A DNA stretch of 64,000 bases from Dioscorea cayenensis subsp. rotundata. Lineage: Eukaryota; Streptophyta; Magnoliopsida; Dioscoreales; Dioscoreaceae. This document shows positions 28,228 to 29,079 of the stretch, piece after piece. The stretch is from the NCBI RefSeq assembly GCF_009730915.1, contig NC_052484.1:1612001-1676000 (forward strand). The letters are read 5' to 3'. Under the pieces are notes generated by a model. The model had not been told where the DNA came from, did not search any database, and saw only the letters and a program-made list of their open reading frames with translations. Position numbers and translations under genes: made by a program. Numbering within the stretch: position 1 is the stretch's first letter; each line of letters opens with the position of its first letter.

Positions 28228-28701
28228 ACTATGTATATTCTAATGGATGATATTAATCGGCCAATAAGTTTGATCTTGGAAGGACCATGCAAAACATGGA
28301 AAATAGCATGGGCTCGGTCTTTGGGCCTGTATAATTATATTTGTGGCCACATGGATTTTAACTCCCACACGTTCCGCAATGATGTCATGTATAATGTTAT
28401 TGATGATGTCGCACCACACTATCTCAAGTTAAAGAATTAGAAGGGATTAATTGGTGCACAGAGAGATTGGCAATCCAATTGTAAGTATGGTAAACCAGTT
28501 CAGAGCAAGGGTGGTATTCTTGCTATTGTTTTATTCAATCTAGTCCCTGAGTCTAGCTATTCTGAATTTCTCGAGAAATGTGATAATCTTTCTCTAAGGG
28601 AGTGGACCCGTCAGAATGTGAAGTTCGAGTTCATTTCCTCTCTAATCTACAGCCTCCAGAGAGACCAGACTACCTCCAGATTAATGGCAGGGTCCTCATA
28701 A
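28228..28701 (+). pseudogene. Endogenous geminivirus: C-terminal part of Rep (helicase region), decayed
   Basis: Rep is the rolling-circle replication initiator of geminiviruses; this fragment covers the superfamily 3 helicase half. Recognisable in order are RPISLILEG followed by a Walker A region that lacks the usual GKT (it reads CKTWK), the Walker B-like NVIDDV, the block GAQRDWQSN with KYGKP, and a sensor-like stretch ending in LFN. The N-terminal endonuclease half is absent: homology begins abruptly next to plant block R2. An in-frame TAG at 28438-28440 breaks the reading, which then continues in the same frame to TAA at 28699-28701. It cannot make a working helicase. Assignment is by family motifs recognised by eye. 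Confidence 0.9.
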
Positions 28702-29079
28702 TTGCACCACAGGCGAAGAATGGCATTTATGTTTGGCAGATAAATAATCCGCTTTATTTCAAATTAAAAGAACACCACGAAAAGGCCCTTTGGTAAGCAA
28801 TATAACATCATCACTATCCAAATACGGTTTAACTATAATTTGATAAGTGCGTTACGGATTCACAAATGCTGGTTCAATTTCAAGTTCTTTACTACCTTGT
28901 TTCCGAGGGGATATGACTTCCTTCATTTATTTAAGTCTCGTGTATTGTATTTCCTAAATGATCTTGGTTTTATTTCAGTTAACAATGTAATTCGCGATGT
29001 CTCTTATTTTGTTAGCAGCCTTTAACAACTTGTTATTGATGTATCACAAGATTTTAATATTCAATACAATCTTTATTAA
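28602..29079 (+). pseudogene. Endogenous geminivirus: REn (C3/AL3), decayed
   Basis: REn is the geminivirus replication enhancer. Its gene normally overlaps the 3' end of Rep in another frame, as seen here. The family blocks are recognisable: APQAKNG, INNPLYFK, HKCWFNF and NDLGFISVNNVIR. The family start Met has no ATG at the matching place. The first frame ends at TAA 28794-28796, the reading moves to another frame from about 28798, and an in-frame TAA lies at 29023-29025 before the natural end at 29077-29079. TrAP (C2), which overlaps this region in exogenous begomoviruses, could not be recognised. Confidence 0.88.

What the first reader, a model, noticed from the sequence alone, without database searches (positions are those of the whole stretch)
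28228..29079. Endogenous geminivirus remnant (Rep helicase half plus REn)
Two overlapping reading frames carry the ordered motifs of geminivirus Rep (C-terminal part) and REn, in the arrangement found in begomoviruses. Both are broken by stops and a frame change, and the Walker A lysine loop is altered. The Rep endonuclease half is missing and homology starts abruptly at plant sequence. This is an old nuclear integration, of the kind reported from yam genomes.
Basis: partly seen in the sequence, partly recalled or inferred. Interest (0 to 1): 0.9.

Follow-up and report, generated by a model that had tools for sequence, protein, structure and literature searches.

The report
Decayed geminivirus fragment in yam chromosome
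This is a broken piece of an ancient plant virus built into what appears to be a yam chromosome, and its relatives elsewhere in the same genome suggest that the virus had two DNA parts and had already lost its coat-protein gene.

Summary
Window 28230-29022 carries Rep residues ~214-360 with one in-frame stop, then a frame-shifted REn (Pfam E 1e-20). The element is longer than reported: it runs on to the remnant of the replication-origin hairpin at ~29770-29789. It is a copy, nearest EGV2, of the yam endogenous geminiviruses already in print (Filloux 2015), and was duplicated with its flanks.

The same genome holds at least 140 Rep and 141 REn matches, plus 63 movement-protein and 60 coat/shuttle-family matches. 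28 of 32 MP/NSP neighbours are convergent, as in begomovirus DNA-B. An A array and a B dimer on one chromosome, both of 2,492-bp units, share a single 187-bp segment (89-91%) spanning TAATATTAC: a cognate common region. No coat gene was seen where one belongs. Alignment ends pile up at the Rep nick site (16 of 20 interior ends). I conclude that these elements derive from a coat-less, two-component begomovirus-like replicon integrated through Rep-nicked strands. Possible shuttle proteins near D. alata rep are already reported (Sharma 2020); the rest I did not find in my searches.

The parts
28230..29789 (.). whole endogenous geminivirus A-component remnant
   Evidence: shared with other copies in the genome; ends by comparison
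28230..28437 (+). Rep C-half, piece 1 (residues ~214-285), altered Walker A
   Evidence: blastp to P0005-P0007 and virus Reps
28438..28440 (+). in-frame TAG stop in rep
28441..28662 (+). Rep C-half, piece 2 (residues 287-360)
   Evidence: blastp 74% to P0007
28688..28692 (+). point of a ~70-bp deletion relative to L015, L019, L021 (rep 3' end / REn start)
   Evidence: alignment gaps
28698..28784 (+). REn N-part (Gemini_AL3 profile 8-36)
28795..29010 (+). REn C-part in another frame (profile 38-110)
29081..29544 (.). stretch beyond REn, shared with other A copies; no coding domain found
29545..29784 (.). virion-side intergenic segment, related to the same segment beside both A and B units
29770..29789 (.). 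remnant of the v-ori hairpin: one arm (29770-29781), then 8 bases like the other arm; loop with the nonanucleotide missing
28230..28235 (.). TATGTA, left copy of a possible 6-bp target duplication (right copy 29790-29795); tentative

Best explanation
The window holds a dead, truncated copy of the A component of a yam endogenous geminivirus (nearest EGV2). Most likely a Rep-nicked, partly copied virion strand joined chromosomal DNA: one end lies at the origin hairpin, the other at a TA run inside rep. It then decayed (a stop, a frameshift, a ~70-bp deletion) and was later duplicated with its flanks. Its family derives from a two-component begomovirus-like replicon (A: Rep and REn; B: MP and NSP; shared common region) whose A circle already lacked a coat gene. 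Shown here: homology, decay, duplication with flanks, A and B units, common region, pile-up of ends at the nick site. Inferred: joining through the Rep-bound 5' end, the coat-less source, and the yam host. The window copy does nothing as protein; whether it makes RNA or siRNA is untested.
For: Homology and decay. Duplicate with flanks: K2P 0.033-0.054. Family: at least 140 AL1, 141 AL3, 63 BL1, 60 coat/BR1-family matches. 28 of 32 MP/NSP neighbours convergent; 30 of 173 clusters hold A and B genes. A array and B dimer with equal 2,492-bp units sharing only a 187-bp segment around TAATATTAC. MP open over 283 aa in L044, L045 and L046, 40-41% to begomovirus BC1, dN/dS 0.16-0.17 in two of three pairs and 0.47 in the third at dS 0.016. 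16 of 20 interior alignment ends within 8 nt of the nick; exact joints in the L011-L013 group, L014, L030, the L023/L024 pair and L044.
Against: The window's own right end is ambiguous: eight bases like the second hairpin arm follow, so it may be a loop deletion rather than a nick end. AL2 and V2 searches found nothing, but their controls were silent too. 17 of 49 MP places have no NSP within 3 kb, and 17 clusters hold a coat-family match alone, so a lone coat gene is not excluded. In L014 a sub-threshold coat-family match lies beyond REn on the opposite strand; I read it as NSP because the A part stops at the nick and a common region plus MP follow. The count of ends treats listed hits as independent, though some loci are duplicates, and only 40 of 44 candidates were scored.
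Confidence: 0.75

Rival explanations
1. Ordinary accidental integrations: a bipartite, coat-bearing begomovirus infected yam ancestors repeatedly, fragments joined by end joining, and the coat gene was lost or is too diverged to be seen.
For: Many decayed fragments with assorted ends; at least three Rep lineages; lone coat-family matches exist (17 clusters).
Against: The tandem A units repeat at 2,492 bp, so the circle that was copied had that size; the stretch between REn and the hairpin in the four units examined holds no coat match. 0 of 30 mixed clusters show a coat-family match in coat position (my reading). Ends cluster at the nick.
Confidence: 0.17
2. The copies were spread mainly by host processes: segmental duplication and other transposons carried viral fragments along.
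For: Shared host flanks: L009/L010, L011-L013, L016/L017, L019/L020, L026/L031/L037, L038/L039; a 2.6-kb insertion with a ~9-bp repeat inside rep in L026, L031 and L037.
Against: Many other fetched loci share only viral sequence, and ends at one 9-base motif are not expected.
Confidence: 0.06
3. Assembly artefact or contaminating virus.
For: None found for the window; some short contigs (e.g. C806, C273) carry much viral sequence.
Against: The window copy is decayed, lies inside a 21-Mb contig near a copia remnant and a SWIRM/amine-oxidase gene, and is duplicated with its flanks.
Confidence: 0.02

Closest known systems
Yam endogenous geminiviruses EGV1 and EGV2 (Filloux et al. 2015, PMC5014472; abstract and whole results section read)
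   Same: Rep and REn without coat or TrAP genes, dispersed and tandem copies, v-ori in EGV1. The window Rep pieces are 67-74% and 65-74% identical to the P0005-P0007 proteins, which I take as EGV2 from their length (~371 aa).
   Different: That paper reports no B component, common region or nick-site ends. Lineage 2 here (L050) is only 64% identical to the protein I take as EGV1 (P0008).
Endogenous geminiviral survey (Sharma et al. 2020, PMC7758297; abstract, section 3.3 and passages seen)
   Same: Reports rep hotspots in D. alata and potential nuclear shuttle proteins there; movement or coat domains in 1,601 of 2,165 loci over all species.
   Different: The text I saw describes no B-unit layout, no common region and no nick-site ends in yam; supplements were not available.
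Bipartite begomoviruses (genus Begomovirus)
   Same: A with Rep and REn; B with convergent NSP and MP; common region with TAATATTAC.
   Different: No coat gene seen; integrated; units of 2,492 bp in the array examined.
Geminivirus-like transposon of Tuber melanosporum (Liu et al. 2011, PMC3198968; passages seen)
   Same: Multi-copy geminivirus-like Rep dispersed in a eukaryotic genome.
   Different: The paper describes 37-bp terminal inverted repeats and a transposase gene; here the inverted segment is the common region, and a transposase was not looked for.
Olea europaea geminivirus (PMC8000510; abstract and passages seen)
   Same: Two-component geminivirid, widespread in plants without symptoms.
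   Different: Episomal; MP in virion sense on its DNA-B.

Membership tests
Yam endogenous geminivirus (EGV2 side) | Rep closest to yam EGV2 Rep | tested here: met
   Window pieces 67-68% and 65-74% to P0005-P0007 against 62% and 47% to P0008; naming P0005-P0007 EGV2 rests on protein length
Yam endogenous geminivirus (EGV2 side) | integrated in a Dioscorea nuclear genome | tested here: inconclusive
   Integrated in a 21-Mb contig with plant-type flanks; host inferred as yam from 90% Rep identity of L022 to a D. alata protein, not from a species name
Bipartite begomovirus (for the family, not for the window copy) | B component with NSP and MP converging | tested here: met
   28 of 32 neighbours convergent; the NSP is in the coat/BR1 family, E 4e-27
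Bipartite begomovirus (for the family, not for the window copy) | common region with nonanucleotide shared by A and B | tested here: met
   187 bp, 88.8 and 90.9%; in window-like copies 62-79% between A and B contexts
Bipartite begomovirus (for the family, not for the window copy) | coat protein gene on DNA-A | tested here: not met
   0 of 30 mixed clusters in coat position (reading); lone coat-family matches remain unassigned
Bipartite begomovirus (for the family, not for the window copy) | TrAP (AL2) gene | tested here: inconclusive
   0 matches, control silent
Transposon with terminal inverted repeats | terminal inverted repeats with target duplications | tested here: inconclusive
   The inverted segment is the common region; a possible 6-bp TATGTA duplication at the window copy was not tested further

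The most novel reading that the evidence does not exclude
The yam EGVs are relics of a coat-less, two-component, vertically inherited replicon: a begomovirus that gave up its coat and spread inside the germ line as a rolling-circle, transposon-like element, with A units, B units and shortened circles all re-entering chromosomes through the Rep-nicked 5' end.
Probability: 0.25. Interest if true: 0.85.

Novelty: new variant of a known kind. Interest (0 to 1): 0.6.

Why it matters
The window copy alone is an ordinary viral fossil. Its family makes two questions testable in existing genome data: when two-component begomoviruses arose (B units fossilised in a yam-like host), and how circular single-stranded DNA viruses enter plant chromosomes (ends pile up at the Rep nick site). 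A replicating A circle without a coat gene, beside a B component that kept its movement genes, would be a surprising way of life for a plant virus.

Tried and rejected
Terminal-inverted-repeat transposon: segment 29545-29784 occurs in both orientations around several copies and first looked like a TIR; it proved to be the common region beside A and B units. Rearranged coat gene on the Rep strand: coat-family matches beside Rep first looked like that; the movement-protein search showed B units. Sharp shared left edge: alignments to the window all start near 28230 because the window does; a rep query from L022 still shows truncation at rep nt 643-656 in several loci. PDB search with the 73-aa Rep piece gave noise. 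Two viral-contig scans gave no usable relatives. A ~100-aa virion-sense ORF in the coat position of lineage-2 A units has no known relative; it is open in 3 of the 4 copies aligned, dN/dS 0.49-0.70, and 44 of 2000 mononucleotide shuffles reach its length, so it is left open. The even-ends null treats hits as independent.

Full report
CHECK. The window pieces were translated and searched apart. Rep pieces 28219-28437 and 28441-28698 match yam EGV Reps from residue 214 to 285 and 287 to 362, 65-74% identical, and virus Reps somewhat less well. One TAG interrupts the frame. REn is split over two frames, Pfam Gemini_AL3 E 2.3e-5 and 9.7e-21. About 70 bp near 28690 is missing relative to kin.

EXTENT. 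Copies in the same genome (G000, 584 Mb; the window is C14:1612001-1676000) share sequence with the window from 28230 to about 29784. The right end carries one arm of the v-ori hairpin (to 29781); the loop is gone and eight bases resembling the other arm follow. TATGTA stands at both edges (28230-28235, 29790-29795), a tentative target duplication. The left edge coincides with a TA run in rep. With the rep frame of L022 as query, rep 5' sequence is lost at nt 643-656 in L009/L010 (the window copy), L014, L016, L017, L019, L025, L028, L029, L032 and L035; breaks lie elsewhere in L018 (130), L020 (682), L027 (328), L034 (607), L038 (412), L039 (401-536), L040 (681), L044 (484-607) and L045 (553); rep reaches nt 1-28 in L011-L013, L015, L021, L036, L042 and L043, and nt 38 in L030. 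Several of these loci are duplicates of each other, so independent events are fewer.

HOST AND AGE. I infer a Dioscorea host: L022 carries an open 369-aa Rep frame, 90% identical to a D. alata protein. No species name was seen. The window copy has an inverted duplicate ~95 kb away that includes the flanks. K2P is 0.033 (left flank, 911 sites), 0.038 (element, 1545 sites) and 0.054 (right flank, 2247 sites). At a recalled plant rate of ~6.5e-9 per site per year the duplication is about 2.5-4 million years old, and the insertion is older. [quoted passage not shown]

FAMILY. Genome searches gave 140 Gemini_AL1 and 141 Gemini_AL3 (150 candidates scored of 163 and 165, so lower bounds), 60 Gemini_coat (52 over the cut-off; the family includes the DNA-B shuttle protein), 63 Gemini_BL1, 0 Gemini_AL2 and 0 Gemini_V2 (controls silent in the last two). 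Merged at 300 bp these are 117, 134, 57 and 49 places in 173 clusters; 30 clusters hold A and B genes. Of 49 MP places, 32 have an NSP within 3 kb: 28 convergent, 2 divergent, 2 on the same strand; 17 have none.

TWO COMPONENTS. On C18 a tandem B dimer (L049) lies some kilobases from a tandem A array (L048); both repeat at 2,492 bp. They share one segment of 187 bp (88.8 and 90.9%), which spans the nonanucleotide. The two B stretches differ at 1 of 1907 sites, the two A units at 156 of 2488. In window-like copies the virion-side segment is 62-79% identical between A and B contexts, and not consistently closer within a locus. MP is open over 283 aa in L044, L045 and L046, 40-41% identical to begomovirus BC1; dN/dS between copies is 0.167, 0.164 and 0.470 (the last at dS 0.016); REn pairs give 0.04-0.17. 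The L044 NSP (261 aa) matches Gemini_coat at 4e-27 and geminivirus capsid structures only at 1e-8. Its protein search found one unnamed relative, so NSP rather than coat rests on position. The protein collection holds a D. alata protein named 'Geminivirus BL1 movement protein'.

NO COAT. By my reading of the listing, in 0 of 30 mixed clusters does a coat-family match stand just beyond REn on the opposite strand without MP between; in 11 of 30 NSP follows Rep or REn on the same strand. L047 shows such a joint at base level: A up to the nick, then B from the nick. Against this: L014, whose Rep and REn the Pfam search missed, has a sub-threshold coat-family match beyond REn on the opposite strand; the A part stops at the nick before it, and a common region and MP follow, so I read it as B. 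Seventeen clusters hold a coat-family match alone and are unassigned.

ENDS. A 251-base query across the L018 hairpin gave 43 alignments (40 of 44 candidates scored): 23 run through and 20 end inside, 16 of them at query 159-175 around the nick (167/168); no non-overlapping 17-nt stretch elsewhere holds more than 2. One of 43 starts in that zone, but pieces on that side are at most 84 nt and harder to detect. The list includes duplicates and one reverse-strand hairpin match. Of 23 displays, mostly chosen for ending near the hairpin, 8 run through the loop, L018_A stops earlier, and 14 stop at or within 3 nt of the nick: exactly in the L011-L013 group, L014, L030, the L023/L024 pair and L044 (B side), 1-3 nt short in the window and L010, L021, L024, L032 and L047. 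The simplest reading is that linear virion strands with Rep on their 5' end were the joining substrate, with variable 3' ends.

RELATION TO KNOWN WORK. The element belongs to the yam EGVs of Filloux 2015. A tree of 18 Rep proteins groups the yam sequences (98/95), with L022 among the EGV2-like ones and L050 sister to P0008 (98/94; midpoint root); the decayed window copy was not in the tree. Sharma 2020 already reports potential nuclear shuttle proteins in D. alata. Ten library searches were made; eight of them bear on B components, integration or nick sites. None listed a paper that I recognised as describing B units, a common region or nick-site ends in yam; of most listed papers I saw only the listing. 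Martin 2011 (PMC3187698, passages) notes that v-oris are recombination hot spots.

Noticed in passing
G000 C13:3702838-3706332, C18:7840692-7844851, C10:9123318-9127517, C10:7075061-7078665: Tandem arrays of the common region at periods near 820 bp (C13, C18) and 843-863 bp (C10, with a Rep N-terminal piece): they look like concatemers of shortened, defective circles.
   Followed up: partly
L046 792-1097, L047 768-1076, L048 1771-2076 and 4263-4553 (virion sense): A ~100-aa ORF ~155 nt beyond the REn stop in lineage-2 A units, where V genes would lie; open in 3 of 4 copies, no known relative.
   Followed up: partly
L026, L031, L037: A 2.6-kb insertion inside rep with a 9-bp repeat at its edges, shared by three duplicated loci; looks like a transposon.
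   Followed up: no
L011, L012, L016 at rep nt ~650: Long (TA)n runs inside or at the edge of rep, at the site where the window copy is cut off.
   Followed up: partly
window 26307-27306: Assembly gap of exactly 1,000 N, which explains the low GC value of that bin.
   Followed up: yes
window 20737-26140: Copia-type LTR retrotransposon pieces: gag, zinc knuckle, Pol_BBD, gag_pre-integrs, weak RVT_2.
   Followed up: no
window 42371-44005 (-): 545-aa open frame with SWIRM and amine-oxidase domains, like an LSD1-type histone demethylase (the LSD1 name is recalled).
   Followed up: no
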